A stretch of DNA of 64,000 bases, taken from contig NC_010571.1 of the NCBI RefSeq assembly GCF_000019965.1, forward strand, positions 2,799,001 to 2,863,000, given 5' to 3'. The DNA comes from Opitutus terrae PB90-1 (GTDB taxonomy: Bacteria > Verrucomicrobiota > Verrucomicrobiia > Opitutales > Opitutaceae). Below the pieces are notes generated by a model. That model was not told the DNA's origin. It saw only the letters and a program-made list of their open reading frames with translations, and searched no databases. A program made the translations under genes and the position numbers. Shown here piece by piece: positions 13,407 through 43,200 of this stretch (positions are counted from its first letter, which is position 1; each line of letters begins with the position of its first letter).

Positions 13407-13452
13407 CATGGGCGGGACGCCCATGCCACGTGGCACGGGCGTCTCGCCCGTG
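13407..13452. repeat. Pair of REP-like palindromes
   Basis: Two 19-bp palindromes: CATGGGCG-GGA-CGCCCATG (13407-13425) and CACGGGCG-TCT-CGCCCGTG (13434-13452), separated by 8 bases and with complementary loops, so the pair as a whole is a larger inverted arrangement. They lie in the gap between the symporter stop and the GntP gene. The same pair recurs at 23419-23476 in reverse order. Confidence 0.85.
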
Positions 13453-23360: not shown

Positions 23361-23418
23361 GGAAGAAAGAGAACCCTGCTGATCCGTGGTCGCGTGGCAA
23401 GAAGGGGCGATCGTGTGG

Positions 23419-23476
23419 CACGGGCGTCTCGCCCGTGGAGGCGTTCGATGGCTCGCATCATGGCGGGACGCCCATG
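23419..23476. repeat. Pair of REP-like palindromes
   Basis: CACGGGCG-TCT-CGCCCGTG at 23419-23437 and CATGGCG-GGA-CGCCCATG at 23459-23476 (one G shorter in the left arm). This is the same pair as at 13407-13452 but in reverse order, here with 21 bases between. It occupies the 158-base gap between the LysE gene stop and the rhomboid start. Confidence 0.8.
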
Positions 23477-26722: not shown

Positions 26723-28900
26723 ATGAATATTCGCGGAGCGGAAGGTCTGTCGCCGGAAAACATCCGGGACGAAATGAAACGGGGTGCGCGCGTGGTGGTG
26801 TTCACCTACTGCGTGTCCCTGCTGGTTATTACGTTCAAGCGCGGCAGCGGTCTGCGCTTCATCAAACCCGGACAAAGCGCCGCAATGGCGGGGCTGCCCT
26901 ACACGCTGCTCTCCTTGGTGGCGGGCTGGTGGGGTTTCCCGTGGGGGCCCATCTACACGATCGAGACGATCTATCGGAACGTCGGCGGCGGGATCGACGT
27001 CACCGACGACGTGCTCCGCCAACTGCTGCCGAGCGCTCCGCGGGTGGTGGCTGAGGTGAAGGCAAGTGAATCGGCGACGGTTCCGATGGCGCCCGCGGCC
27101 GGCGCAGCGAAACCGCGGGGGCTTAACTACCGCGCGATCGGCTTGATGGCCGGGGCCGCCGCCGTGATCGCGGTGGTCGGGACGACCGGCTACTGCCTCT
27201 ATCAGCAGCAGAACCTGACGGTGGTGGTGTGTTCAGGCATCGACCAACCGTATGCCGTTCAGCTGAACGGCGAGGTGCACCAGCTGGGGGCGCACGGGGT
27301 GGAGACGCTGCAGTTGGCCGAGGGGGTGTTCACGCTCGAGGATGCGGCGGGGAGCCACGTCGTCGGGACGCCGCAGACATTCGAGTTCCGGCTGCCATTG
27401 CTTGATCACCTCGGAACGAAACGCGTGCTCGTGATCAACCCGGACCGCGCGGCGGTGTTGGTGCGCGAGGAGATTCCGTATTACAGCGACGGCACCACGC
27501 CCCCGGCGAACGAAGCCGGCCAATTCTCGATTCTTGCGAATCAGGGCACCCATTTCATCGAGCGCCCCGACTACGTGATCGAACCTGCGGAGGAGCGGAT
27601 CAACATGCCCAGTGGCACGAGCCGTGTGGTGAAATCCCGACTTGATTACCTTCACGGTCAGGAGCCCCCTGCGCGGGTGGCGGCGTTGCTCGTCAACAAG
27701 CTGGGATACGACGGTGCACGCGTGCACCTGATGACGCTCGGCCGCTATCGCGCCGACGAGGATCTGCTCTACGCCGCCGTGAGCACGTTGAAACCCGAAG
27801 ACATGCCAGCGTTTTTCCGGCAGCGTCTCGCTGACCGGCCCGTGCTTTTGGAGTGGCATCGCTACTATCAGCAGATGATGGAGGCGACGCAGCCGGACTG
27901 GGATCTCGCCGGCGAGTATCGTCGTTACGCCGAGGCTGAGCCGGAGAACGGCGCGTTGCAGTATCTGTTCGGTCGCACGGTGGTGGACTTCGCCACCGCC
28001 CAGCAGTGCTGGCAGCGCGCGCTCAACGCCCCGCAGCCTTGTGCCTATGCGCACATGGCGCTCGGCTACGACGCCCTCTCGCTGGCACAGTTTGAGGAAG
28101 CGTGGCAGCACATCGTCGCTGGGGGAGAAGCGAAACTGCAGAGCCGGTCGCAGACGCGTTATCGCCGGGACGCGATGTGGGCGCTCAACCGCTACGAAGA
28201 GCTGGCCAAGGAGCTGGCAGACGCGCGCAAGGCGGAGCCGCTCGACCTCGAATTGGTGGGTGAGCAGATCACGGTCGTCCTGGCGGCGCAGCGGCCGGCG
28301 GTGGAGGTCGAGCAGTTGAAGACGGCGTTGTTGAAGCAGATGAAAGCTGCCGACGCGACGCCGGAGACGTTGGCGGACTGTTCCGCTTATCTGGACGCGG
28401 TGGTGGCTTATCACGCTGAGGACCTGCCGACCTACGCGAGCCTCGTGTCGCGATTCAAAGCTCCATTCTATCAGTTTCGTGCGGCGGTGGCGCGCAGCGA
28501 TCTGGAGGCGGCAGCCAAAGCGGCGGCTGCACAGGAGCGCCCCGGCGTGACCGAACACCTCCTGCTGTATCTGCTCGCGCGGCAGAGCGGTCAGGACGAG
28601 ACGGCCGATCAGCATTTCGCAAATGCGGTTGCGGCCATGAAGAACGGGTCGCCCGAATTCCGCAGCCTTGCCGGCATGCTCGCGAACGAAGCGCAAGACC
28701 CCACGGCGATCTGTCACCTGCGTTTCTCGACGGAAGACAAATGTGTCCTGCTCGCGACGATGGGGCTGCGTGATCCGGTGCACCGCACGACCTATCACGA
28801 ACTCGCGCGAAAGCTGAACTTCCGTCCGGGGTTCCCGCAGCACCTGCTGCGGCAGGTGCTGAAACCTGCTGAGACGCGTGCAGCCGGCGCTGCGTTGTGA
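26723..28900 (+). CDS. Large membrane-anchored protein of unknown function
   Basis: 725 residues. Residues 20-40 (GARVVVFTYCVSLLVITFKR) and 55-80 (AGLPYTLLSLVAGWWGFPWG) form a conserved-looking N-terminal membrane module ending GPIYTIETIYRNVGGGIDVT. A further helix lies at about 137-160 (AIGLMAGAAAVIAVVGTTGY). The remaining 560 residues are soluble: a beta-rich part to about 270, then helical, TPR-like material (LQYLFGRTVVDFATAQQCWQ, YAHMALGYDALSLAQFEEAW). I do not recognise a function. The opening resembles small uncharacterised membrane proteins of the same phylum, so this could be a fusion of that module with a TPR-type domain. Confidence 0.7.
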   Translation: MNIRGAEGLSPENIRDEMKRGARVVVFTYCVSLLVITFKRGSGLRFIKPGQSAAMAGLPYTLLSLVAGWWGFPWGPIYTIETIYRNVGGGIDVTDDVLRQLLPSAPRVVAEVKASESATVPMAPAAGAAKPRGLNYRAIGLMAGAAAVIAVVGTTGYCLYQQQNLTVVVCSGIDQPYAVQLNGEVHQLGAHGVETLQLAEGVFTLEDAAGSHVVGTPQTFEFRLPLLDHLGTKRVLVINPDRAAVLVREEIPYYSDGTTPPANEAGQFSILANQGTHFIERPDYVIEPAEERINMPSGTSRVVKSRLDYLHGQEPPARVAALLVNKLGYDGARVHLMTLGRYRADEDLLYAAVSTLKPEDMPAFFRQRLADRPVLLEWHRYYQQMMEATQPDWDLAGEYRRYAEAEPENGALQYLFGRTVVDFATAQQCWQRALNAPQPCAYAHMALGYDALSLAQFEEAWQHIVAGGEAKLQSRSQTRYRRDAMWALNRYEELAKELADARKAEPLDLELVGEQITVVLAAQRPAVEVEQLKTALLKQMKAADATPETLADCSAYLDAVVAYHAEDLPTYASLVSRFKAPFYQFRAAVARSDLEAAAKAAAAQERPGVTEHLLLYLLARQSGQDETADQHFANAVAAMKNGSPEFRSLAGMLANEAQDPTAICHLRFSTEDKCVLLATMGLRDPVHRTTYHELARKLNFRPGFPQHLLRQVLKPAETRAAGAAL

Positions 28901-28969
28901 CGGGGTCGCAGGGCAGCCGGTCAGGTCGCGCGGCCCGTGGACCGGCTGCAACCGGAAAGAGACGTCGAG

Positions 28970-30082
28970 CTACGCGGTCGCGGACGAACAGCGGCGATGA
29001 CGCGTGAGCACGAAGCCGCCGAGAACGAGCGCGGCAATCCAGCCGTAGGTGGCCGGCTCGGGCACAGGGGTGAGGATGTAGGGGTGATACAATCCGTCCG
29101 GCGTGTAGGCGATTCCGGTGATCTGGCCGCGATCGTTGACATCGTTTGCTGTCAGCAGCGTGTAGCCGAGGGCCGGATCGATCAGCGTGTTCAGGTCGAC
29201 GACCGCGCCGCCGACGTAGCCGAACGCGCGCTGCTCGCTGGTGCCCATGTTCATCGGATCGACGGCGATGCCACTGTTGTAGGTGCCCACGGCCACACCG
29301 CTGTCGCCGAGCGCGTTCAGTTCCGTGAGATTCACCATCGTCCCGAGCATCGTCGAAACGCCTCCCTTGAGCAGGTAAAGCGTGTCGCCGGAGAGACTGA
29401 GGATGTCGCCATGATCATTGAAGCCGCGCAACGAGCCGGTAAAGGTGCCCGCGAGCGGCGTGTGCACGCCGGCCTGTGAGGTGTAGAGCACGCCGCCGGC
29501 CTGACTGAGGAAGATGCCGTCGTCGCTGAGGCTCAGGAGCGTTGCGCCCGGCGGAAGATAAGAGGAAACCGGACTGAACGTGCCGTCGGGAATCGAGTAG
29601 ACCTGATTGCCGCTGACCATCACTAAACCGTTGTTCGTCACGCGCGTGGCATCGCTATATTCCTCCGGCGGGAAGGGGCTGATGTCGTGCACGTCCGTTG
29701 CGGCGTTCGAGTAGTAGCCGTGGCTGATGTCCGAGCTGTTGTTGATCCGCGAATTTCCGACGATCACTGCGCTGTCATTAATGTCGGTGGCGAAGTTGTC
29801 GTGGCCCGGCAGTCCGGTGCCATCGGATAAGGTGGGCACGCGCGTGTGCGTGCCGCCGGAGACGAGGAAGCCAGCGTAGTCGGGATAAATGCTGAGCAGT
29901 GTGTAGGCGACCTGACCGTGGTTGTTGATCACCGGCTGATACGGAACGACGTAGTCGACCCAGCCGGGATCGCCGAGATCAGTCAGCTCATACGAGCCGG
30001 CCTGCGCATACAGCGGCAGCAAAACACCAGCCGCGAGCGCGGCCAGCGGGCGAAACGAAGCAACGGAGTTCCAGGCATTCAT
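28970..30082 (-). CDS. PEP-CTERM protein with HAF-type repeats
   Basis: 370 residues from the ATG at 30082 (signal: VASFRPLAALAAGVLLPLYA, then QAG). The body has repeated I-N-x-x-G-x-V / D-I-N-D-S units (PVINNHGQVAYTLL, ATDINDSAVIVGNSRI, NDVNDRGQITGIAYTPDG), as in HAF-type extracellular repeat proteins. The tail is a complete PEP-CTERM sorting signal: VPEPATYG, a hydrophobic helix (WIAALVLGGFVLT), then RHRR. Such tails are processed by exosortase, and the protein is displayed or released with exopolysaccharide. No exosortase gene is in this window. It diverges from the luciferase-like gene. Confidence 0.88.
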   Translation of the reverse strand: MNAWNSVASFRPLAALAAGVLLPLYAQAGSYELTDLGDPGWVDYVVPYQPVINNHGQVAYTLLSIYPDYAGFLVSGGTHTRVPTLSDGTGLPGHDNFATDINDSAVIVGNSRINNSSDISHGYYSNAATDVHDISPFPPEEYSDATRVTNNGLVMVSGNQVYSIPDGTFSPVSSYLPPGATLLSLSDDGIFLSQAGGVLYTSQAGVHTPLAGTFTGSLRGFNDHGDILSLSGDTLYLLKGGVSTMLGTMVNLTELNALGDSGVAVGTYNSGIAVDPMNMGTSEQRAFGYVGGAVVDLNTLIDPALGYTLLTANDVNDRGQITGIAYTPDGLYHPYILTPVPEPATYGWIAALVLGGFVLTRHRRCSSATA

Positions 30083-30259
30083 GGACAGGATGGTGGATTC
30101 GAACCGCTGGCGGAGTTCGACTGACGGCAGTAGCGCGCCGGGCGTTCGACTCAAGTGCCGATTGCTTGCTGTAGCGATCGCGCGGTCACGAAACGATTGC
30201 ACGAACGTTCCGGCATCGGGGAGCGCTTTGAAAAGAAGTGACCCGGTCGCGAGTTCCGA

Positions 30260-30277
30260 ACGATCTGCGCAGATCGT
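30260..30277. promoter_or_regulatory. Perfect 18-bp palindrome between divergent genes
   Basis: ACGATCTGCGCAGATCGT reads the same on both strands with no spacer. It lies in the 312-base gap, 118 bp from the luciferase-like start and 178 bp from the PEP-CTERM start. An uninterrupted palindrome of this length is a plausible binding site for a dimeric regulator. I see nothing else in the gap. Confidence 0.5.
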
Positions 30278-30394
30278 CAGGGGATTGCTGACTGCGGGAT
30301 CAGCGTGCGAGTAGGGGCGGGCGCGCCGCGGCATTGCGTATGCACGCTGTTGGTGTCCGCTGGCAACTCGCACGCCAATACACACGTTGGCGGC

Positions 30395-31411
30395 ATGATT
30401 CCCTTTTCGGTTCTCGATCTCTCGCCTATCGTTCAGGGCGGCACGGTGGCGGACGCACTACAGCGCTCGCGCGAACTGGCGCAGGCCGCCGAGAGGCTTG
30501 GCTATCGGCGGTTCTGGCTGGCGGAGCATCACGGCATGCCCGGCATCGCCAGCGCGGCGACCGCCGTGGTGATCGGGCACGTGGCCGCTGGCACGTCGAC
30601 GATTCGCGTCGGCTCCGGCGGGATCATGCTGCCGAACCACGCGCCGCTGGTGATCGCCGAACAGTTCGGCACGCTGGAATCACTGTTTCCCGGTCGGATC
30701 GATCTTGGGCTCGGCCGTGCGCCGGGCACGGATCCTGTCACGGCGCATGCGCTGCGTCGCGGTCGGTCAAACAGCGCGGACACGTTCCCGCAGGACGTAG
30801 TGGAACTGCAGGCTTACTTCCGCGGCGGGGCCGGTCAGCCGGTGAGGGCGGTGCCGGGAGCCGGACTGTCGATTCCGATCTGGCTGCTTGGTTCGAGCCT
30901 GTTCAGCGCGCGACTCGCGGCGGCGCTGGGGCTGCCGTTCGCGTTCGCCGCGCATTTCGCGCCCGATCTGCTCGACGAGGCACTGGGCATTTACCGTGAG
31001 GAGTTCAAGCGTTCGGAAACGCTCGCGCGACCCTACGCGATGGCGGCGATCCAGATCTACGCGGCGGAAACTGACGCAGCGGCGGCGCGGTTGTTCACGT
31101 CGCTGCAGCAGAGTTTCCTGCAACTGCGGCGCGGCGCGCCCGGTCCGCTGCCTCCGCCCGTCGACGGCATGGACGGACTCTGGACGCCGCTGGAACGCGT
31201 CGGCGTGATGAGCGCGTTTCACGAGGCGGTGATCGGATCGCCGGCGACAGTGGAGCAGGGCATCCGGGCATTTCTCGACCGAACGCGCGTCGACGAGTTG
31301 ATGATCACCGGCGCGATTTACGACGCCGCTGCGCGGGTGCGCTCGCTCGAGCTCACCGCGGAGGTGCGCGAGCGGCTTGCCGCTTCCGGAACGGATCGAC
31401 GAATCGGGTAA
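30395..31411 (+). CDS. LLM class flavin-dependent oxidoreductase
   Basis: 338 residues from the ATG at 30395 ([16 protein letters not shown]). The luciferase-like monooxygenase features are [60 protein letters not shown] and [20 protein letters not shown]. The opening SVLDLSPI and the [10 protein letters not shown] motif match the MsnO8-like subgroup of LLM enzymes, which use reduced flavin and O2. Role and substrate are unknown. It is a single gene that converges with the DUF421 gene, 12 bp apart. Confidence 0.92.
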
Positions 31412-31423
31412 GCATTCGCGAGG

Positions 31424-31927
31424 TCAACGCTTCAACACCGAGATCTGACCATTGCGCTCGAGCAGCGCCTGGCGGACTTCGCGCGGATCGGCGACGCCAC
31501 TGATCCGGAGATCCTCGGCCAGATCGTCGCGACTGAGCGAGTGGGCGCGGAGGGTTTTTTCGTGCACGCGGCCGTTTTCGATCAGCGTCGCCGGCTCGCC
31601 CTTCGCGAGCCGGCCGAAAGCGCCCCAACGCGCGCCCAGGAAGGTGAACCCGCGGTGGACGAACACGAGGACGAAGCCCGTCGCGAGCGTCGGGAAAAAT
31701 GCGGCGCTACCGTTGATCGCGCGCGCGAGCGTCGAGGCCAGCACGAACGTGAGCAGGACGTCGATCGCGTTGCGGCGGGCGAAAAACCGCTTGTGCGAGA
31801 GCCGGAGCATGATCAGCGCGGCGACAAAAACGACCAGCGCGCGCAGCGCCATCTGCGGGAATAGCAGCTGATGAGGCTCCGCGTTCAGCCCGAGCCAGGT
31901 GTCCACCAAAATTTTGAACGACTCCAT
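31424..31927 (-). CDS. DUF421 (YetF-like) membrane protein
   Basis: 167 residues from the ATG at 31927. Three N-terminal helices (MALRALVVFVAALIML; NAIDVLLTFVLASTLARAIN; FFPTLATGFVLVFVHRG) are followed by the cytoplasmic DUF421 domain (GEPATLIENGRVHEKTLRAH, DDLAEDLRISGVADPREVRQ, ending ERNGQISVLKR). The family is of unknown function and is found in many bacteria. Similarity to the remnant at 34188-34323 continues in frame upstream of this ATG (DAVGDRV against LAVGDRV), so the true start could be farther upstream at a non-ATG codon. Confidence 0.88.
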   Translation of the reverse strand: MESFKILVDTWLGLNAEPHQLLFPQMALRALVVFVAALIMLRLSHKRFFARRNAIDVLLTFVLASTLARAINGSAAFFPTLATGFVLVFVHRGFTFLGARWGAFGRLAKGEPATLIENGRVHEKTLRAHSLSRDDLAEDLRISGVADPREVRQALLERNGQISVLKR

Positions 31928-32020
31928 GACGCGGTCACCGACCGCGTCTAGCTGGGGGAGTTCGGGCGGGGAGCAAGCGGCGGCCGGCGCTTTGGGCAGC
32001 GGCCGGAAACCGGGAAAACT

Positions 32021-34111
32021 TCACTTCTTCAGGCGGGCGGCAGGCTCGATCTCCAGCGGCTTCCTGTGCAGGAGGAACGGAATCCAGCGCGTGCGATAGT
32101 TGTCGACGTAGAAGAAGTCGGAATGCTTCCATGCCGGGTGGACGTGCTGCAGCAGCCGGGAATCTGCGGTGGTAAACTTCGCGGCGCCCGACGCGCCCGT
32201 ACCCGAGACGAACCAAACGACCAGCTTGACCCAGAGATCCCGATGCCCGCAGTCGTTCAAGATTTGGCGGACCCGATCCTGGGCCAGATAGACCGGCCAG
32301 GGAAAATCGCGTCGTATGATCGAACCGCACAAAACGATGCGGTCGAAGGAGAGCCCATAGGTTTCGAGCGCTTCTGCGACCAGGTAGGTGCCGAAGCTGT
32401 GGGCGACAATCGAGCACCGCTTGATCCCGTGTTCGTGGCAGAAATTGGAATAGGCGTCGCGGAAGCGTGCGACCGCACGGCGGCGGGCCGAAGGCAGGAA
32501 GAAGCTGATCAGGTTGAAGTACCCGTAGTCGAATGGGTAGTGGTTGATGCCGGCGTCGTTCAAGAACGGGTTGATGTGCCTTTGCCAGGAGCCGTAGGTG
32601 CGAATGCCGTGAAGTGTGGTTACCCAGAGCACCCTGGCCGCCTTCCGGGCGGAAAGCCGCGCGCCGATGTTCCCCGGGGTGGCCACGCTCAGGATCTTTT
32701 TCGCGCGTTTGAATTGGACCGTGTTGGGAATGTCGGCGGGCGATTCGTATTCGAGGGTTCCGTCCGCCTGTTTGATCGCCCGGTCCTTGTGGTGGGGGTC
32801 ATGCGGGTCACGTACGTAGTAGCTGGCCTGGAAGCGAGCGCTATTCTGTCTCTTGAGCGCCTCGAAGGCCGCGAAGACCAGTTCCGTCGTGATCCCATCT
32901 TCGGCCGCCAGTTGGTGGGCCAGGATCTCCTGCTTTCCAAGTCGGGAAAATTGCAGGTCGAGCCGGTGCATCACATAGCGGAGGCTCGGCGTGTGTTGGG
33001 CCACGGCCCTGAGGTCGGGGTCGAGAATAGTCTCCTCATTCTCTGCGCACCGTCGCACGTCGGCGAGTAGGGCGCGGCCGTCCTCGGCTTCACAGGCACT
33101 GACCAACTCGAGATGATTGGTCTTGGAGAATATCCAGACTTCGACGCGACGATCCGATGCGTTTGGTGAGACCCAATCGTAGTGGAGCTTGAGCCCGGCA
33201 TACTCGCCGAGCCGGAGCTGCTCGGTGTCCGGGCTCGGTGCGGCGTGCCCATCAAGCCAGCCTCCGTTGGCCAGCTTTACGACCCAGCGCCGGATGGTGG
33301 ACGCCCGGCTGTCCAGCAGGTTCCGGATGACGGGTTCCAGTGGCACCGGCATAAACGGATCAAAGCCGAGCATCCGGACCACGATCTGCCGGTAGATCTG
33401 GACCTCCTGCGCGAGGGAGCGTCCGGCGTTCTCATGCAGCGTCTGGATCCGCAGCTCCGATTCACCGGTGCGGAGATCAAGGTGGAAAAAGTTGAGCGAC
33501 CGCTCTCTCCGCGGTATTGCGATTTGAGCTTTCTGTCCGTTGGCGGGATTGATCTTGGTCGAGATCGTCTGCAGCCAGGTCCGGGTCTCGACCCACTTGA
33601 GCAGGAGGTCGTCCGGGGTGTGGCGCAGTTCGCATAGCTGGGGTTGCTCTGCGTCCCAGACGTAGATGCTGTTATTGAAACAATCCTGCTCGTCCCCGGC
33701 TTCGGTCCGGCTTTGGCAAAAAGCTGCGGTGCGCTCCCGGAGGGCGGTGGCATCGCGCAGCGATGCCAGCATGGGTTCGTCGCCGCCTAACGCCGTGCGA
33801 TGAAGGAAAACGTTCTGTCGGCCCCACCGCTGCAGTTTCTCCAAACCAGCCATGAAATCCGACAGGCGAAGCGGATGTCGTGCGATGCGGCCGGAGAGGG
33901 CGTCGGTGACGTAATCCCGCAGGTCATCGAGGAGAAGACCGGCCGGGAGTTCCAGCTCACCGAGACATTTGTCGACGTGCGGCCGCGTATAACTGAAAAG
34001 CGTGTCGACTGCTTCCGTGATTCGTTCCGAATCCGGCGTGACGACAGGATTTCCCTGTCCCGGCAATGTCGGGGCGCTCGCCTGTGCGGACGTATCAGGG
34101 GAGACTGACAC
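32021..34111 (-). CDS. Orphan 696-residue protein with C-terminal lipase-like alpha/beta hydrolase domain
   Basis: The first 480 residues match nothing I know: a helical N-terminus (ERITEAVDTLFSYTRPHVDK), then mixed regions (CFNNSIYVWDAEQPQLCELR; RERSLNFFHLDLRTGESELR). The last 200 residues form an alpha/beta hydrolase: VLWVTTLHGIRTYGSWQ (the HG oxyanion motif), then CSIVAHSFGTYLVAEAL with A-H-S-F-G as nucleophile elbow (Ser about 571), FDRIVLCGSIIRRDFPW, and a His-rich tail (LQHVHPAWKHSDFF) for the catalytic His. No signal peptide is seen. By eye the DNA is less GC-rich than its neighbours. It lies exactly between an intact and a decayed DUF421 gene start, suggesting later insertion. Confidence 0.75.
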   Translation of the reverse strand: MSVSPDTSAQASAPTLPGQGNPVVTPDSERITEAVDTLFSYTRPHVDKCLGELELPAGLLLDDLRDYVTDALSGRIARHPLRLSDFMAGLEKLQRWGRQNVFLHRTALGGDEPMLASLRDATALRERTAAFCQSRTEAGDEQDCFNNSIYVWDAEQPQLCELRHTPDDLLLKWVETRTWLQTISTKINPANGQKAQIAIPRRERSLNFFHLDLRTGESELRIQTLHENAGRSLAQEVQIYRQIVVRMLGFDPFMPVPLEPVIRNLLDSRASTIRRWVVKLANGGWLDGHAAPSPDTEQLRLGEYAGLKLHYDWVSPNASDRRVEVWIFSKTNHLELVSACEAEDGRALLADVRRCAENEETILDPDLRAVAQHTPSLRYVMHRLDLQFSRLGKQEILAHQLAAEDGITTELVFAAFEALKRQNSARFQASYYVRDPHDPHHKDRAIKQADGTLEYESPADIPNTVQFKRAKKILSVATPGNIGARLSARKAARVLWVTTLHGIRTYGSWQRHINPFLNDAGINHYPFDYGYFNLISFFLPSARRRAVARFRDAYSNFCHEHGIKRCSIVAHSFGTYLVAEALETYGLSFDRIVLCGSIIRRDFPWPVYLAQDRVRQILNDCGHRDLWVKLVVWFVSGTGASGAAKFTTADSRLLQHVHPAWKHSDFFYVDNYRTRWIPFLLHRKPLEIEPAARLKK

Positions 34112-34187
34112 GGTGTACCGAGCTTGTCCGCTGGGCCAATACTGTCAACGCACGAGCGGCCTGTTATTCGGCTGCGTGCAGCTTGCC

Positions 34188-34323
34188 GATTGGCGCGACG
34201 ATAAAGATGACGATGGCGCGGAGCGCCATTTACGGGAGCAGCAGCTGTGGCGGCTCCACCCCCAAGCCGAGCCAGGTTTTTACCAGATTTCTGGACGATT
34301 CCACCACGCGATCACCGACCGCC
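34188..34323 (-). pseudogene. Remnant of a second DUF421 gene (5' end)
   Basis: This stretch aligns without gaps to 31811-31946, the 5' end of the intact DUF421 gene, with 101 of 136 bases identical. On the minus strand it reads LAVGDRVVESSRNLVKTWLG, then LGVEPPQLLLP, a stop (TAA), then MALRAIVIFIVAPI, against MESFKILVDTWLGLNAEPHQ... in the intact copy. Similarity ends about 76 bp before the orphan hydrolase gene. The rest of the 378-base gap (34112-34489) holds only a partial REP (GATGCCCATGCCACG) near 34474. Confidence 0.8.
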
Positions 34324-34489
34324 AGAATCGTGGCCGTTCGACGCTACCGGGAAACGTCGTAGTGGCACCTGCATCTGGCCCGTGGTCGCGGGCGCGACCA
34401 TCCATTTTGCCGCCGGCCGGTGAGGCGTGAGAGCGCGCGGTCGGAGCGGGGGTGGCGGACCGAGCACGGGCCAGATGCCCATGCCACGT

Positions 34490-35725
34490 TCAGTTCGCTC
34501 GCGCCTTCACGGGCCGCCCGTCGCGGATGGTGTCGGGCGGATGCACGACGACACGGGCGCCTTCGGTCACACCGGAGATCACCTCGGCGGCGATGCCGCT
34601 GTTGTGACCGATCTCCACCTTGCGCAGTTGAGCGTCGCCGCCTTCGACCACAAACGTCATCCAGTCGCCGCCGCGGCGGAACAGCGCGCCGGTCGGCAGT
34701 TGAAGAATGTTCTCGCCGCGCCACGTGACGATGCGTGCTTCCACGCGATAGCGATCGCCGAGTTCGCGGCCCGGCGGCAGCGGATCGAGAAAATCGACGC
34801 GGACCTTCACGCGCTGCTCCTCGACGCCGAGCGCGGAATATTTGGTGAACCCGGCGCGCTCCACGAGCGCCACGCGGCCCCGCAGCGGCTGCTCACCGCC
34901 CCATTCCTCGATGATCACGTCGGCACCGGGCGCCACGGCCACGGCGTCGGTCGAGAGCAGTTCGATCTCGGCCTCCAGGTCGCGTGGGTCGCCAACTTCC
35001 ATGATCGGTTGGCCGGGCGCGACGACGCGGGCGCTTTCTTCGAACACGTTCAGGACGAAGCCGTCGAGCGGCGCGACGATCCGCAGTGTGGCCGCGGTTT
35101 CGCCCGACGGTCGCTGGGCCTCGAGCAAGGCGGCCTGCGCCTGCGCAATTTCGAAATCGGCGACCCGCAGCGCGAACTCCGCCGCGTGCAGTTCGCGGGC
35201 CGCCATCAACGCACGGTTGCTGATGACGTCCCAATCCTGCTCGGAGATCGCGCCGGACTGGTGCAGCGGTTCCGCACGCACGACATCCTTCTGCGCGAGC
35301 TCGTGCGCCGCGTGTGCTCGCTCCGCGTCCGCTTGTCGGGCCTGCCGCGCCGCCTCCGCGGCGTGGACGATCGCTTCGGCCTGGGCCCGCGCGCGCGGAT
35401 CGAGAAAGGACGAGGCCGCCGGTTCAAGCGTGGCGAGCACGGTCTCGCCGGCGACGATCGGCGCGCCAGCGCGGAGCTCCACGCGGTTGAGTTGCCCCGC
35501 CACCGGCGCCGAAATCGTGTAGCGGTGACGGATCCGGGTCTTGCCCTCCTCGAATACGGACACCACCAGCGGTCCCTGCGCGACGGTGGCGATCTCGACT
35601 TCGACCGCTTTGGGCCAGAACCCGGCGACGAGCGCGAGGAGGATCACCGTGCCGATGGCATACGGCACGAGACGCCGCCAACGCGGGCTGTTGCGACCGG
35701 GACGAGAGGAAGATTTCGCAGTCAT
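34490..35725 (-). CDS. Periplasmic adaptor (HlyD/MacA-like) subunit of an ABC efflux system
   Basis: 411 residues. One N-terminal membrane helix (LVPYAIGTVILLALVAGFWP) is followed by a lipoyl/barrel-sandwich half (ISAPVAGQLNRVELRAGAPI), an alpha-helical hairpin of about 90 residues rich in Ala and Arg (ARAQAEAIVHAAEAARQARQ...), the second lipoyl half (LRIVAPLDGFVLNVFEESAR) and a beta-barrel domain. It joins an inner-membrane ABC exporter to the outer membrane. It lies 28 bp after the FtsX-type permease gene and is the last gene of a three-gene operon (ATPase, permease, adaptor). No outer-membrane TolC homologue is in the window. The substrate is unknown. Confidence 0.9.
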   Translation of the reverse strand: MTAKSSSRPGRNSPRWRRLVPYAIGTVILLALVAGFWPKAVEVEIATVAQGPLVVSVFEEGKTRIRHRYTISAPVAGQLNRVELRAGAPIVAGETVLATLEPAASSFLDPRARAQAEAIVHAAEAARQARQADAERAHAAHELAQKDVVRAEPLHQSGAISEQDWDVISNRALMAARELHAAEFALRVADFEIAQAQAALLEAQRPSGETAATLRIVAPLDGFVLNVFEESARVVAPGQPIMEVGDPRDLEAEIELLSTDAVAVAPGADVIIEEWGGEQPLRGRVALVERAGFTKYSALGVEEQRVKVRVDFLDPLPPGRELGDRYRVEARIVTWRGENILQLPTGALFRRGGDWMTFVVEGGDAQLRKVEIGHNSGIAAEVISGVTEGARVVVHPPDTIRDGRPVKARAN

Positions 35726-35753
35726 GGGAAAAAGAAGGAATGCAACGAGCCGG

Positions 35754-38117
35754 TCAGTCGCGGGCTTTCAAAACGCCAAGTAGATCGAGGTGCTTGAGCC
35801 GGCGGCTGACGACAGCAAACGAGAAGCCCGAGGACACGAGCACGATCAATACCGCCGTCGCGTAGGTCCGCGTGGTGAGCACCAGCGGCAGCCGCACGGT
35901 TTCCGTGCTGCTCGCCTCGACGATCAGCCGCGCGAGCTCGCTGCCGAGCCACAGCCCGAACGGCAGCGCGAGCAGCGTGAGCAAGCCGAGCTCGCCCACG
36001 AGTACGGTGGCGATCTCACGATTGGTGAAACCGATCACGCGCAGCGTCGCGAGATCGCGGGTGCGCTCCGACAGCGCGATCCGCGCGCCGTTGTAGACGA
36101 CGCCGAAGGCGACGATCACCGCGAAGGTGAAGTAGATCGTCTGGATCGTGCCCATCATGTCCGCGACGGTGTCGTTGAAGCTTTTGCGTGACGCCGCGGT
36201 GATGATCAACGCGCCGATCCGCGGCGCCTCCTTCACGGCCGCGAGGAAATCGTCCCAGCGCACGCGGTCGATCGTCAGATGCGCGCCGCTGACGGTGTTG
36301 CCTTCGCGCAGCAGCCGACGCAGCGCGCCAATCTCCATGTAGGCGGCCACGCCGGCGAAATCCGTGATCGTGCCTGCGACAAAGGTGTCGAGCACCGGCC
36401 GGCGGCCCTCCTGCACCTCGATGCGGATGGGATCGCCGGGCTTGATCGCGAGCAGCTCGGCGAGTTTTTCCGAGAGGAGAAGTCCGGAGATCGGCAGCGA
36501 GGCGGGCTGCGCGTTGACGTCGAGCACGCGGTTCAACCGCGTCTCGCGCGGCAACCCGGTGATCGCCACGCGGTGGTCGCGGGGACCGAAGCGCAACCGC
36601 GCGGGCACGGCGCGAAACGGCTCCGTGTTGATCACACCGGGCAGCGAGGCGATCGCACTGAGCGCCTTGGCGGAGCCGGGCTCGATCAGGCTGACGGTGA
36701 CATCCTGCCGCTGCGCGAGGCTCCACTGAAAATCCATCAGGTAGGTGATGCCGTCGCGAATCGCACCAGGAATGATCGGGATCGCGGTGGCGAACACCAG
36801 GCCCAGCGCGGTGAAGAACGCCTGCCACGGTTTGCGTTCGAGATTGCGCAGCGCCATCCGGAAGGCCGGCGAGACGAGTCGCTGCAGCCCGAGGCGTTCG
36901 AGCGCCGACGGTTTGAAATCCGCCGGGGGTTCGGGCCGCATCGCCTCCGCGGGCGGCAGCCGGACGGCCTGGCGCACGGCACCCGCGACGCCGAGCAGCG
37001 AGGTGCCGGCGCTCGCCAGCAGCGCGAGGATGACCGACGGCCATTCGGGCCGGAACACGAGTCCGGGGAACCGATAGAACTTGTGGTAGAGTTCGACGAC
37101 GGCCGACCCGAGCCAGAATCCGCCAATCGAGCCGAGCAGCGTCGCGGCGACCACGATGACGAGCGCGAACTTCAGGTAATGCACCCCGACATCGAGCGAC
37201 GAGTAGCCGAAGGCCTTAAGCTGCGCGATTTGCTCGCGCTGCAGTCGAATCACGCGCGTGAGCGCCGCGCTGGTCATGAACGCGGCGATGCTGAGAAACA
37301 CCGTCGGGTAGGCCGCCGCGGCGACGCGCAATCCGGCGAGTTCGTCCTCGAGTTGCCGGTTGGAGAAGTGGTCCTTGCGGTCGTACGCCACGCGACCGCC
37401 GTAAGGCTCGAGCAGCCGGTCCACCTCAGCGAGGACCGTGCGAGTGTTCGCGCCCGGCGCGACGTCCAGCACGACGTTGTTGAAGGCGCCGTCCAGATCG
37501 AACGCCATCGCGAGTTCGCGTTCGTTCATCCAGAACACGCCGAACCGCTGCGGATCCGGCACGGTTTCGCCGGCGCGCGCTTCGAACACGAACTCCGGCG
37601 AGAGCCCGATCCCGACGATCCGCAGTCGCTGCCGCGCGCCGTAGATCGTGGCGTCGATCGTGTCGCCGGGTGAGAACCCATGCGCATCGGCGAACGCCTC
37701 GCTGACCACGACCTCGTTGCGACTGCCGAGCTCCGGCAGCCGGCCGCTGCGCAGGTAGAGCAGGTTGAGCTGCTGCGGGCGGTCGTCGGGAATCGAAAGG
37801 ATCTGTCCGTCCGCGGGCTCCTTCATGCCAGGCAGATCGAGCACCACCGCGCCGGTGACGCGGGTCTCGACTGCGCCGACGCCGTCGATTTCCGCGAGCC
37901 GGGCGCGCAGCGAGTTCGGGGCGCGCTTCAAATCCGCAAACACGTCCGCGAAGCGATGGTCGCCGTAGTAGACGTCGCGCTCGACCTCGAGCGACCGGAT
38001 CAGGCTCCGCGCCATGATCATCATCATGAGTCCGCAGACCATGACCAGCGCGACCGCCGTCATTTGCCCCTTCATCGAGGCGAGGTCGCGGATCAATTTG
38101 CGGTCGAGCGGAGGCAT
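35754..38117 (-). CDS. ABC transporter permease, FtsX-like (two FtsX domains)
   Basis: 787 residues from the ATG at 38117 (MPPLDRKLIRDLASMKGQMT). It has a first helix (VALVMVCGLMMMIMARSLI), a large periplasmic MacB-type domain, and three helices of the first FtsX domain (TVFLSIAAFMTSAALTRVIR LQREQIAQLKAFGYSS region). The second FtsX half starts FRMALRNLERKPWQAFFTAL, has another periplasmic domain, and ends with three helices (TLRVIGFTNREIATVLVGEL). The R-x-Q-I-A-Q-L-K-A-F-G-Y and LATLRVIGF motifs are the coupling segments that touch the ATPase. This type transmits mechanical force to periplasmic partners or exports lipids, peptides or drugs. It forms an operon with the ATPase (91 bp upstream) and the adaptor. 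Confidence 0.92.
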   Translation of the reverse strand: MPPLDRKLIRDLASMKGQMTAVALVMVCGLMMMIMARSLIRSLEVERDVYYGDHRFADVFADLKRAPNSLRARLAEIDGVGAVETRVTGAVVLDLPGMKEPADGQILSIPDDRPQQLNLLYLRSGRLPELGSRNEVVVSEAFADAHGFSPGDTIDATIYGARQRLRIVGIGLSPEFVFEARAGETVPDPQRFGVFWMNERELAMAFDLDGAFNNVVLDVAPGANTRTVLAEVDRLLEPYGGRVAYDRKDHFSNRQLEDELAGLRVAAAAYPTVFLSIAAFMTSAALTRVIRLQREQIAQLKAFGYSSLDVGVHYLKFALVIVVAATLLGSIGGFWLGSAVVELYHKFYRFPGLVFRPEWPSVILALLASAGTSLLGVAGAVRQAVRLPPAEAMRPEPPADFKPSALERLGLQRLVSPAFRMALRNLERKPWQAFFTALGLVFATAIPIIPGAIRDGITYLMDFQWSLAQRQDVTVSLIEPGSAKALSAIASLPGVINTEPFRAVPARLRFGPRDHRVAITGLPRETRLNRVLDVNAQPASLPISGLLLSEKLAELLAIKPGDPIRIEVQEGRRPVLDTFVAGTITDFAGVAAYMEIGALRRLLREGNTVSGAHLTIDRVRWDDFLAAVKEAPRIGALIITAASRKSFNDTVADMMGTIQTIYFTFAVIVAFGVVYNGARIALSERTRDLATLRVIGFTNREIATVLVGELGLLTLLALPFGLWLGSELARLIVEASSTETVRLPLVLTTRTYATAVLIVLVSSGFSFAVVSRRLKHLDLLGVLKARD

Positions 38118-38208
38118 TGAGGGAAATCTCAAACGCCCAAAGGCCAAAGCCCAAAGCGCCTGGTTTTTTTGGGATTTGTGGACTTGGCGTTTGGAATCTG
38201 GCGAAGCG

Positions 38209-38964
38209 CTACCATTTCAGCGACTGCACCGACTGGCGCTGGGCGTTGCGGTGGATCTGCGTGATGGCACCGTCGGAGAGATGAATCACGCGATCGGCCA
38301 TGTCGGCGATGACGGCGTTGTGCGTGATGACGACTGCGAGCGTGCCGAGATCGCGGTTCACGCGATCGATCGCGTCCAGCACGGACACGCCGGTCTTCAC
38401 GTCGAGCGCGCCGGTGGGTTCGTCGCAGAGCAGCACCTCGGGCCGCTTGGCAATGGCGCGCGCGATGGCGACGCGCTGCTGTTCGCCGCCGGAGAGCTGC
38501 GAAGGAAAGTGATCCATGCGCGGGCCGAGCCCGACCAGCTGCAGCGCTTCTTCGGGCGACATCGGATCGCGCGCGATCTCGGTGATGAGCGCGACATTCT
38601 CCCGCGCGGTCAGGCTCGGGATGAGGTTGTAGAACTGAAACACGAACCCGACCGTTTCGCGGCGATAGCGCGTGAGATCGTTTTCATCGGCATGCGTCAG
38701 GTCTGCGTCGCGAAAGGTCAGGCTGCCGTCGGTCGGCACATCGAGTCCGCCGAGAATGTTCAGCAACGTCGACTTGCCGCTGCCGGAGGCGCCGAGCAGC
38801 ACGACCAGTTCACTGGCAAACAGGTCGAGATCCACGCCGTTGAGGGCGCGCACCTCCACGTCGCCGGTGGCGTAGACCTTGGTGAGCCCGCGCGCGCGAA
38901 ACAGCGGATCGCGCTCGGTCGCCGGGACCGGTGAGACGGGGGAGGGGGGAGTGACGGAGCCCAT
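38209..38964 (-). CDS. ABC transporter ATP-binding protein (MacB/LolD type)
   Basis: 251 residues. Walker A is GASGSGKST, the Q-loop is [20 protein letters not shown], the signature is [15 protein letters not shown], Walker B is [13 protein letters not shown], and the switch His is in [17 protein letters not shown]. The [14 protein letters not shown] and CDEPTGALD text places it in the LolD/MacB (FtsE-like) group that partners FtsX-fold permeases. The first 18 residues are Pro/Ser-rich and the start could be internal. It is the first gene of the operon; no regulatory motif is clear in the 189-base gap before the next divergent gene. Confidence 0.94.
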
Positions 38965-39153
38965 GGTGCTTGGTGCGCGGGACGAGGTCGGAGAGGATCA
39001 GACATTTGTCCGTTCCCCGGCGATGTCAGTGCCGAAGATGATGAGCGGTCGCCGCCGCGGTTTGGCCGACGCATCTCCTCGGTAAAAGCTGAGCCACGGA
39101 CGCGAAAGCGCTCGGATGGGCGGCGCCCCGGCCAGCAGCTAAAATCAGGCGCC

Positions 39154-40216: not shown

Positions 40217-43200
40217 ATGAATCGGATCGTCGTTTCACTCCTTGGTCGGCGCGCGGCCAGCGTCACGTGCCTTCGGTTGTTGTTCCTGCTCCTCGGCTCG
40301 TTGCTGCCGGCCGCCGCGTTCGGCGCGTTCGGCTACACGGACAATGGCACCGGCTATGTGGTCGACACGAACGCCGGCCTCGTCTTCGAGGTGAGCAAGA
40401 CCAACGGCGACATCGTCTCGATCGTCTACAACGGCACGGAATACAAATCCACCACCGGCCGCTTCTCACACATCGCCTCCGGACTTGGCTCCGCGACGAC
40501 CGTCACGCCGGAGAGCGACGGCACCGGCTACGTGAAGATCACGCTGCAGACGGATCCGACGAACGGCGTCGTCTCGAGCCTCACGCATTACCTGATGGTG
40601 CGCAACGGCGAGGCGACGATCTACCTGGCGACGTTTCCCACGGCCGAGCCGAACGTGGGCGAATTGCGCTGGATCACCCGGCTCAACTCCGCGCTGCTCC
40701 CGAATGGCCCCGCTCCGTCCGATCTGCGCGGCAACACCGGCGCGATCGAGAGCTCCGACATCTTCGGCATGGCCGATGGCACCACGCGCTCGAAATACTA
40801 CGGTGACGATCTCACGCGCGGCAAAGTGCGCGCGATGGACCTGACTTACATGGGCGCTACCGGCCCGGCGGTCGGCTGCTGGATGGTGTACGGGAATCGC
40901 GAGAGCGCGTCCGGCGGACCGTTCTTCCGCGACATTCAAAACCAGTGCGGCGACGACCAGGAAATCTACAACTACATGAATTCGGGCCACAATCAGACGG
41001 AGCCCTATCGGCTGAACGTCCTGCACGGCCCGTATGCGCTGGTGTTTACCAACGGCGCGGCGCCCACGCTGCCGCTCGACTTTTCGTGGATCGAACCGCT
41101 CGGTCTCACCGGCTGGGTGCCCGCCTCGGCGCGCGGCGCGGTCAGCGGCACGGCGACGGGAATCCCGGCGGGGTTCCAAGGCGTGGTCGGTTTCGCCAAC
41201 AGCACCGCCCAATACTGGGCCGTGGTCGCGGCTGACGGCAGCTACACCTGCACGGGAATGAAACCCGGCACCTACACGACGACGCTCTACAAAGGCGAAC
41301 TCGCCGTGGCCACGGACGCGGTTGACGTCACGGCGGGTGCGACGGCGTCGCTGAACCTCGCCTCCACCGAGGCTGCGCCGTCGGTCATCTTCCGGATCGG
41401 CGAGTGGGATGGCACGCCGCTCGAATTGCTCAACGGCCCGAACCTGACGCGGATGCATCCGCAGGATGTGCGCAACGCTTCTTGGAATCCCGGAACGTTC
41501 GTCGTGGGGCAGGACAACGCGGCCACGGATTTTCCGGCGGTGCAGTTCCGCGGCGCAAACAGCCCGAGCGTGATCGAATTCACGCTGGCGCCGAATCAGC
41601 TCGTCGACCTGACGCTGCGCATCGGCATCACGTGTGCCTACGCGAATGGCCGGCCGCAGGTGAGCGTCAACGGCGCGTGGACGTCCGCCGTGCCCGCACA
41701 ATCGACGCAGCCGAACTCGCGCAGCTTCACCCTCGGAACCTATCGCGGTAACAACTGGCTGTTCACTTACACGATTCCCGCGAGTGCGCTGGTGGCCGGC
41801 ACGAACACGCTGTCGATCAACCCGGCCAGCGGCTCGACCGATCTCGGTACCTGGCTCAGCGCCGGCTGGGCTTACGATGCGGTCGAACTCGAAGGGCCGA
41901 TCGCCGCGCCGGCGATCTCCTATGTCGGGGGCGATCCGCTGGTGATCAGCGGCACCGCGGAACCGGGCCGAAACATCGCGTTGTTCGTGGATGGCGCGAC
42001 GCCGGCCGGCACCGCCGTCGCGTCGGCCGCCGGAGTGTGGGCCATCACCTATGGCACGCCGCTCGCTCCGGGCGCGCACAACTTCACCGCCGTCGCCAGC
42101 GACAACGCGGGCCACAGCAGTCCGGCGTCGGCCGCGTATGCGCTGAACACCGCAGTCGCGATGCCGGCGGATCTGGCGGCTACGGGCGACTCCGGAGCGT
42201 TTGGCAGCGGCGACACCACCGCGGATCGAACGTTCACCTTGAGCGGCACGGCGGGCGCGGGCGACACGGTGACGATCACTCGGCTTGGGTTCGGCGTGAT
42301 CGGAACCGTGACGGCCGACGCCGCGGGACACTGGACGTTCGATTACACCGGCGTGGCTTTGCCCGAGGGCGTGAACAGCTTCTATGCCACGGCCTCGAAT
42401 GTGAGCGGCACGGGCGCGTCCTCGGCGATCTTCACGCTCAACATCGCGGGTGAAGCGGCGGTGACGATCCTGCGGCAAGCGCCATTGACCGACACCGTGG
42501 TGGCGGGCGCGGGCGACGTCGTTTTCCGCGTCACGTTCCGCGATAGCGTGAGCGGCGTCACGCCGGGCGCTTTCGTGCTGACGACCAGTGGCTCGGCCAC
42601 CGGAACGATCGCCAGCGTGTCCGCTTCGAGCGGTGAGGTGATCGATGTGACGGTGACCGGACTCGCCGGCACGGGCATGCTGCGCCTCGATCTGAAGACG
42701 GCGAGCGGCATCGTCGATGGCGGCGGCAATCCGGTGCCGGGCTACCACGCCGGTGAAACCTACACGCTCGTGCTGCCGACGACCGGCAACGGCACCTGGA
42801 TCAATCCGACAAGCGGAGGTTTCTGGAGCAATCCGTCAAACTGGCAGAATGCGGTGATCGCCGATGGCGCGGCGAACGGAGCCGACTTCAGCACGCTCGA
42901 TCTACTGGCCGACAACGCCGTGCACCTCGACTCGCCGCGGACACTCAACCGCGTGATTCTGGGCGATCTCGATCCCGCCACCGTGGCGAGCTGGACGATC
43001 GACAACAACGGCGTCGCCGCGAACACGCTCACGCTCGCGGGCGCTTCGCCGACGATCACGGTCAACGCGCTCGGCACCGGTGCGAACGCGACGGTGGCCA
43101 CGCGACTCGCTGGCAGCGGCGGCCTGACGAAGACAGGCGCCGGCACGCTCGTGCTTACCGCGCAAAACGCGCTGACCGGTGCACTCACCGTGAGTGGCGG

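What the first reader, a model, noticed from the sequence alone, without database searches (positions are those of the whole stretch)
31811..34323. Orphan gene inserted between an intact DUF421 gene and a decayed copy of its 5' end
31811-31946 and 34188-34323 align without gaps (101 of 136 bases identical), including bases upstream of the ATG. The second copy has a stop codon and is cut off shortly before the orphan 696-residue gene. The arrangement (intact copy, cargo, fragment copy in the same orientation) is what a gene-capture event at a tandem duplication would leave, and the cargo is less GC-rich by eye.
Basis: partly seen in the sequence, partly recalled or inferred. Interest (0 to 1): 0.68.

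Follow-up and report, generated by a model that had tools for sequence, protein, structure and literature searches.

The report
Fused DNA-ring sensor and hydrolase gene
The 'orphan' gene wedged between two copies of a membrane-protein gene is a one-piece version of a small gene set carried by integrated phages, joining a predicted DNA-encircling protein (the fold of phage lambda's RexA exclusion protein) to an enzyme, and it may be an undescribed phage-defence module.

Summary
In detail: 31811-31946 and 34188-34323 share 101 of 136 bases (1000 shuffles reach at most 62). The cargo has lower GC (61.6%) than 29 of 30 window genes and no full-length relative in 387 phylum genomes, but no empty site was found and the capture mechanism is open.

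The cargo is not an orphan. Its C-terminus is an alpha/beta hydrolase with an intact Ser-Asp-His triad, shared with plasmid, chromosomal and prophage proteins. Its N-terminus (residues 79-354) is homologous to a ~340-residue protein A (profile E 1.6e-8; best of 60 shuffles 0.013). A is encoded just upstream of the hydrolase in a compact A-B-C cassette in 13 bacterial genomes and 12 viral contigs, in cases examined near portal, integrase, tape-measure or endolysin genes. An AlphaFold model of A (pLDDT 90.9) matches RdgC (Foldseek E 2.4e-6; Z 11.6), the fold of lambda RexA.

Best reading: a single-chain, Rex-like module in which an RdgC-fold DNA-binding sensor controls a hydrolase effector, probably for phage exclusion. 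Fusion, fold and prophage setting are shown by computation; DNA binding, activation and defence are inferred.

The parts
31424..31927 (-). Intact DUF421 (YetF C-terminal domain) gene, 167 aa
   Evidence: Pfam 60.4 bits; relatives at 58-60% identity in three other genera
31811..31946 (-). Repeat copy 1: 5' end of the intact DUF421 gene and 19 bases upstream
   Evidence: 101 of 136 identical to copy 2
32021..34111 (-). 696-codon cargo gene (GTG start): RdgC-fold part, middle, alpha/beta hydrolase
33050..33877 (-). Region homologous to cassette protein A (residues 79-354), predicted RdgC/RexA-type fold by way of its relative
   Evidence: hhalign E 1.6e-8 with controls; model of the relative and fold search
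32657..33049 (-). Middle region (residues 355-485), in the place of cassette protein B; homology not shown
   Evidence: position only; score not significant
32054..32623 (-). Alpha/beta hydrolase domain (residues 497-686); triad S572, D625, H663
34188..34323 (-). Repeat copy 2: decayed 5' end of a second DUF421 copy, TAA at codon 25
34362..34487 (.). Palindromic interspersed repeat (REP-like) next to the fragment
   Evidence: inverted repeat, 85% complementary; 41 matches of its core in the genome with up to 2 mismatches, control 0

Best explanation
The 696-residue protein is a single-chain relative of a mobile cassette. Shown by computation: its N-terminal half is homologous to cassette protein A; a relative of A is predicted with high confidence to have the RdgC fold, which is also the fold of phage lambda RexA; its C-terminal part is an alpha/beta hydrolase with an intact catalytic triad. 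Inferred: the RdgC-fold part dimerises and binds DNA, as RdgC and RexA do; a state of DNA that marks phage replication or recombination changes its conformation; the middle region passes this on; and the hydrolase is released to cleave a cell component (a lipid or another ester), stopping the infected cell. The cassette would thus be a Rex-like exclusion module with a hydrolase in the place of RexB. In this genome the fused gene lies at the DUF421 locus, with a diverged DUF421 5' end left on its upstream side; integration helped by homology is one way to get there.
For: Own residues 79-354 against the A profile: hhalign prob 95.5, E 1.6e-8, versus a best of 0.013 in 60 shuffles, 0.39 for the reversed sequence and 0.047 in 30 other window genes; hmmsearch E 6.8e-6 among 4362 sequences, best shuffle 0.19. 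A, B and C stand together in the same order in 13 of 80 genome loci and 10 of 15 viral loci found with the hydrolase, and in 11 of 11 viral loci found with A alone (9 of these 11 are contigs already found). A two-gene form (A, then a longer hydrolase) occurs in L066, L067, L117 and L119, and the two kinds of A are related (hhalign E 9.8e-9). Model of A from L137: pLDDT 90.9. RdgC is the top PDB match (Foldseek E 2.4e-6, prob 1.00; Z 11.6, 218 aligned, rmsd 6.1), followed by CENP-L and Iml3; the RexA paper names IML3 and CHL4 as sharing this fold (PMC11077077, passages). Prophage setting: portal, terminase, scaffold, integrase, tape-measure and endolysin neighbours. Defence neighbours of the two-gene form: BilA and BilD and a PD-Lambda-4_A relative.
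Against: No experiment. RexA's DNA binding does not track its exclusion activity (PMC11077077, discussion), so a DNA-sensing model may fail even if the fold is right. The match to RdgC has a low global TM-score (0.37, rmsd 10.3). None of 23 A-type sequences, own included, matches RdgC in Pfam. The B-like middle is not significant. Own N-terminus against the two-gene A proteins is not significant (hhalign E 0.15). PADLOC gives own protein only DruH at E 0.034-0.054 and the cassette proteins only weak matches. I saw no phage or defence gene beside the host gene, reading the frames by eye. 65 of 80 genome loci and 5 of 15 viral loci have the hydrolase without a detected A. The model is of the Pseudomonas relative; own single-sequence model is poor (pLDDT 38.5). 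tblastn found no relative among 50,697 phage records, and own N-terminus none among plasmids.
Confidence: 0.55

Rival explanations
1. The cassette is a prophage regulator rather than a defence system: the RdgC-fold protein tunes lysogeny or recombination (as RexA biases the lambda switch and RdgC limits RecA), and the hydrolase makes or breaks a signal. The Opitutus copy has been domesticated for a host task.
For: RexA acts on the lambda switch, and exclusion may be a side effect (PMC11077077, discussion). The cassette lies in prophages.
Against: Two-gene forms lie next to Bil and PD-Lambda-4 defence genes on plasmids, and the cassette occupies several unrelated prophage positions, which suits an accessory gene set better than a built-in regulator.
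Confidence: 0.22
2. The gene is an enzyme of ordinary metabolism with a structural N-terminal part; the resemblance to RdgC says nothing about its task.
For: Alpha/beta hydrolases are very common; a shared fold does not show function; the hydrolase family also occurs with kinases, receivers and TPR proteins.
Against: Patchy distribution (only own genome among 387 in the phylum has a full-length hydrolase match) and the constant A-B-C linkage on prophages.
Confidence: 0.13
3. On the origin: the DUF421 fragment is simply the decayed member of an old tandem duplication, and the cargo came in later and independently, or by deletion next to the palindromic repeat.
For: The copies are old (dS about 0.59, dN/dS 0.42 over 39 codons); REP-like repeat close by; no empty site and no sign of an integrase.
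Against: The cargo lies exactly between the two copies, and copy 2 ends 76 nt from its start.
Confidence: 0.4
4. The gene is an inert passenger.
For: No relative of the same architecture was found.
Against: 696 codons open and an intact triad.
Confidence: 0.1

Closest known systems
RdgC (recombination-associated protein; ring-shaped DNA-binding dimer)
   Same: Fold of A over model residues 75-349 (Foldseek E 2.4e-6; Z 11.6)
   Different: About 11% identity and no Pfam match; extra N-terminal helices; encoded with B and a hydrolase, or fused to one
Lambda RexA/RexB and Rex-like exclusion systems of actinobacteriophages
   Same: RexA has the RdgC fold, dimerises, binds DNA and acts with a partner encoded by the same phage (PMC11077077: abstract, passages, discussion)
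   Different: The partner here is a hydrolase plus protein B, not RexB (a membrane ion channel: recalled); RexA itself is not among the rows listed; no exclusion phenotype is known
RdgC-histone operons of Bacillus and Halobacteria
   Same: An RdgC-like protein in a conserved operon with a partner that has a winged-helix domain (PMC11390915, passages)
   Different: There a histone and a membrane protein; here protein B and a hydrolase. No function is given there either in the passages read
PDC-M60 (PADLOC candidate defence system)
   Same: The same hydrolase domain ends the third protein of the plasmid operon that matches PDC-M60
   Different: No A; receiver domains instead. The PDC-M60C profile matches only residues 3-153 of the plasmid protein, and own protein does not match it
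DUF421/YetF membrane proteins
   Same: The flanking gene and the fragment
   Different: No DUF421 match was looked for beside the cassettes elsewhere; it is a neighbour here, not known to be part of the system

Membership tests
A-B-C cassette (defined here) | N-terminal region homologous to A | tested here: met
   hhalign E 1.6e-8 with controls; hmmsearch E 6.8e-6
A-B-C cassette (defined here) | B homologue between A and C | tested here: inconclusive
   16 of 2000 shuffles and 18 of 1417 real windows score as high; hhalign E 0.045 over 16 columns
A-B-C cassette (defined here) | C-terminal hydrolase of the same family | tested here: met
Alpha/beta hydrolase superfamily | Ser-Asp-His triad and HG motif | tested here: met
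   Invariant in 8 aligned sequences; own S572, D625, H663, HG at 501
Alpha/beta hydrolase superfamily | Pfam curated cut-off | tested here: not met
   Own Abhydrolase_1 18.7 bits, cut-off 25.8; the relative L137 C passes with 29
RdgC family | RdgC fold | tested here: met
   on the Pseudomonas relative of A, not on own protein; global TM-score low (0.37)
RdgC family | Sequence match to the RdgC profile of Pfam | tested here: not met
   Not among the 10 families matched at E <= 10 by the 23 members of A6
RdgC family | Ring dimer, non-specific DNA binding, effect on RecA | not testable with these tools
   needs biochemistry
Rex exclusion system | RexA-like structure | tested here: inconclusive
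   RdgC, CENP-L, Iml3 and CENP-N match; RexA itself not listed
Rex exclusion system | RexB-like partner | tested here: not met
   The gene after A and B is the alpha/beta hydrolase in the loci with A
Rex exclusion system | Phage exclusion phenotype | not testable with these tools
   no experiment
PDC-M60 | Match to PADLOC PDC-M60 profiles | tested here: not met
   Own protein: only DruH, E 0.054
DUF421/YetF | Pfam DUF421 match of 31424-31927 | tested here: met
   60.4 bits, cut-off 23.6
Integrative element | Integrase or transposase beside the cargo | tested here: inconclusive
   None seen by eye in the frames of 27000-39000; five proteins scanned with Pfam

The most novel reading that the evidence does not exclude
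A class of Rex-like immunity in which one DNA-encircling RdgC-fold sensor is combined with exchangeable effectors: RexB in lambda, a winged-helix membrane protein in the RdgC-histone operons of Bacillus and haloarchaea, and here an alpha/beta hydrolase, encoded as three genes, two genes or one fused gene. The window gene is the one-chain version and a ready-made minimal form for the laboratory.
Probability: 0.4. Interest if true: 0.86.

Novelty: new variant of a known kind. Interest (0 to 1): 0.66.

Why it matters
How the lambda Rex system senses phage and kills has been open since Benzer's rII work, and its sensor was only recently shown to have the RdgC fold (PMC11077077). A cassette that joins the same fold to a hydrolase instead of RexB, in one chain in this genome, would make the sensor-effector idea testable with a single catalytic-site mutant. 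It would also turn the RdgC fold from a recombination curiosity into a sensor platform of mobile defence. I found no description of an RdgC-fold plus hydrolase cassette in the papers searched (open-licence PubMed Central only, no preprints).

Tried and rejected
Sequence routes that gave nothing for the whole protein: NCBIfam, PHROGs, phage records, genome contigs with the single protein (15 pattern matches, 0 relatives), viral contigs with the single protein, plasmids with the N-terminus at E <= 1, PDB by sequence (best E 0.84). PDB by sequence with the A profile (two matches to an immunoglobulin-blocking protein, E 0.26-0.27) and with the B profile (best E 1.1): taken as chance. With the hydrolase profile the best PDB matches were a putative lipase (E 0.0015), with pumilio proteins at 0.03, so it is not a clean assignment.

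Rejected: that the DruH match means Druantia (E 0.034-0.054 over 51 residues). Rejected: that PD-T4-6 matches of L072 and L075 make those proteins PD-T4-6; I read them as shared protein-kinase domains. By eye I first took the 330-residue Aminobacter protein as a relative of own N-terminus; pairwise BLASTP did not support it (E 1.8), and the direct profile comparison is still not significant (E 0.15); the link runs only through A. By eye I took the middle region as B-like; not significant. VIA-align rows: phosphoglucomutase, PR-10 and TBP (Z 4.5-6.7) were set aside as partial or below the tool's own noise level; CENP-L, Iml3 and CENP-N (Z 5.4-7.6) are also below 8 taken alone. In the Verrucomicrobiota search, 30 of 387 genomes match the hydrolase profile, but the 29 others do so only partially (best E 1.9e-10, positions 60-154 of 208), and I took them as other hydrolases. 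RexA itself is absent from the listed rows.

Dropped rows: the A profile uses 17 sequences and leaves out near-identical copies (L139-L142, L156); the cap kept 80 of 90 genome loci; L155 has only the end of A at a contig edge but is counted as A-B-C.
Full report
The window lies in a single-contig genome of 5,957,605 bases, a length that I recall as that of Opitutus terrae PB90-1 (not checked). Homology begins 19 bases upstream of the start codon and ends sharply after about 40 codons. The second copy carries TAA at codon 25. Differences fall 14, 10 and 8 on codon positions 3, 1 and 2, with dN/dS of 0.42 over 39 codons, so part of the divergence was probably under constraint, though 39 codons are few. 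The copies share 24 of 39 residues; the intact copy shares 19 of 39 with each of three other genera, and the fragment 11 to 15. The duplication, or the meeting of two alleles, is old.

The cargo gene has 61.6% GC, lower than 29 of 30 window genes. Close to the far side of the fragment lies a palindromic repeat whose core has 41 matches in the genome within two mismatches and none when read backwards. I saw no integrase or transposase by eye in 27000-39000, and ARAGORN finds no tRNA in the window. In the stretches taken from four family genomes, the luciferase-like gene, the DUF421 gene and the HlyD gene that flank the cargo here are not neighbours, so no empty site could be read.

Residues 497-686 of the cargo product match proteins on 22 plasmid records at 25-33% identity (listed rows), mostly hypothetical proteins. 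Eight aligned domains share the HG motif, the serine in HSFGT or HSYGT, an aspartate and a histidine; in the window protein these are S572, D625 and H663. A scan of 84,980 species genomes with two short motifs gave 90 relatives, of which 80 were kept, and 15 viral contigs. The domain appears with many partners: receiver domains and a large protein matching PADLOC PDC-M60, kinase-like N-termini, TPR regions, and separate small genes.

One of these settings explains the rest of the window protein. In 13 of 80 genome loci and 10 of 15 viral loci the hydrolase (about 297 residues) follows a gene of about 340 codons (A) and one of about 125-140 codons (B), with genes that overlap or nearly touch. 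An independent scan with A alone found 11 viral loci, and 11 of 11 have B and C next to A; two of these contigs were new, giving 12 viral contigs in all. Two genome loci and two plasmids have a two-gene form. The window protein's residues 79-354 align with the A profile over nearly its whole length at E 1.6e-8; 60 shuffles reach 0.013 at best, the reversed sequence 0.39, and 30 other window genes 0.047. The middle of the window protein sits where B would be, but its similarity to B is not significant (16 of 2000 shuffles, 18 of 1417 real windows as good). Thus the cargo is a one-gene relative of a three-gene cassette; the A and C parts are supported, the B part is open.

The cassette travels with phages. 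In L158 and the related L154 it lies next to a DNA methyltransferase gene and then portal, terminase and scaffold genes; in L148 next to an integrase gene; in L089 between the major tail protein gene and the tape-measure gene; in L157 near an endolysin gene. In E. coli P2-like phages the region between gpA and the portal gene gpQ is a known hotspot of anti-phage systems, home of old and tin (PMC9122126, passages read); the portal-side position in L154 and L158 recalls this, but I did not identify gpA there. The two-gene form follows Bil genes (BilA, BilD) on an Aminobacter plasmid and precedes a PD-Lambda-4_A relative on a Rhizobium plasmid. Five Pseudomonas genomes share the cassette in a block of about 3.3 kb at 94.6-94.7% identity, with unrelated sequence on the left.

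The fold of A is the main surprise. With 23 aligned sequences (own N-terminus among them), AlphaFold gives a model of the Pseudomonas protein with mean pLDDT 90.9 and pTM 0.87. The best PDB matches are E. coli RdgC (Foldseek E 2.4e-6, prob 1.00, but global TM-score only 0.37; Z 11.6 over 218 residues, rmsd 6.1). Next come CENP-L (7.6), Iml3 (7.2) and CENP-N (6.7). In the viral library, named recombination-associated or RdgC proteins of phages score E 3e-7 to 2e-4, and the top row is named an exonuclease (E 3e-8). The crystal structure of lambda RexA was reported to be homologous to RdgC, IML3 and CHL4 (PMC11077077, abstract and passages). RexA dimerises and binds DNA non-specifically, and RexA with RexB excludes T4 rII mutants. 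The large rotation between domains described for RdgC and RexA could account for the low global TM-score, but I did not test this. Invariant residues of A include K149, R181 and R252 in L137 numbering; the window protein keeps K172, R204 and R177 at aligned places. No sequence method links A to RdgC.

How it most likely works: the RdgC-fold part forms a DNA-encircling or DNA-clamping dimer, phage DNA metabolism changes its state, and the hydrolase is switched on. Each of these steps is inference. The strongest caution comes from RexA itself, whose DNA binding does not correlate with exclusion. A regulator of lysogeny is the main rival. A third RdgC-like operon, with a histone and a winged-helix membrane protein, is described in Bacillus and Halobacteria (PMC11390915, passages); together these suggest one sensor fold with exchangeable partners.

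Verdict: observation confirmed, capture idea partly supported, orphan status overturned. The gene is a fused member of an apparently undescribed prophage cassette with a RexA/RdgC-type protein and a hydrolase. Searches for it in print found none, in a library limited to open-licence papers.

Noticed in passing
window 13410-13449, 23415-23434, 34362-34487: Family of short palindromic repeats (core GGGC[CGA][AG]GA[TC]GCCC[AG]TGCCAC); 41 matches in the genome within 2 mismatches, control 0.
   Followed up: partly
L072, L073, L075 (Nocardia and an acidobacterial MAG): Proteins of about 840-865 residues end in the same hydrolase domain; the N-termini of L072 and L075 match kinase-type PADLOC models. 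A kinase-hydrolase fusion.
   Followed up: no
L067 3750-5893 and L066 8974-15183: A-hydrolase pair beside Bil genes (Aminobacter plasmid) and beside a PD-Lambda-4_A relative (Rhizobium plasmid).
   Followed up: partly
L023, L029 (Enterobacter and Klebsiella plasmids): Three-gene operon of a large protein, a small protein and a receiver-hydrolase; in L023 all three match PADLOC PDC-M60. The hydrolase half is outside the matched part of the profile.
   Followed up: partly
L137 2983-6317 and L139-L142: The cassette in five Pseudomonas genomes lies in a shared block of about 3.3 kb that also holds a 177-codon frame on the other strand.
   Followed up: no
L068 1440-5579, L069 760-4998: The closest hydrolase relatives (45% and 41% identity) end proteins of 1379 and 1412 residues of unknown N-terminus in acidobacterial MAGs.
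   Followed up: no
window 40217-45826: A 1869-codon frame with many repeat-like segments, possibly a surface or autotransporter-like protein.
   Followed up: no
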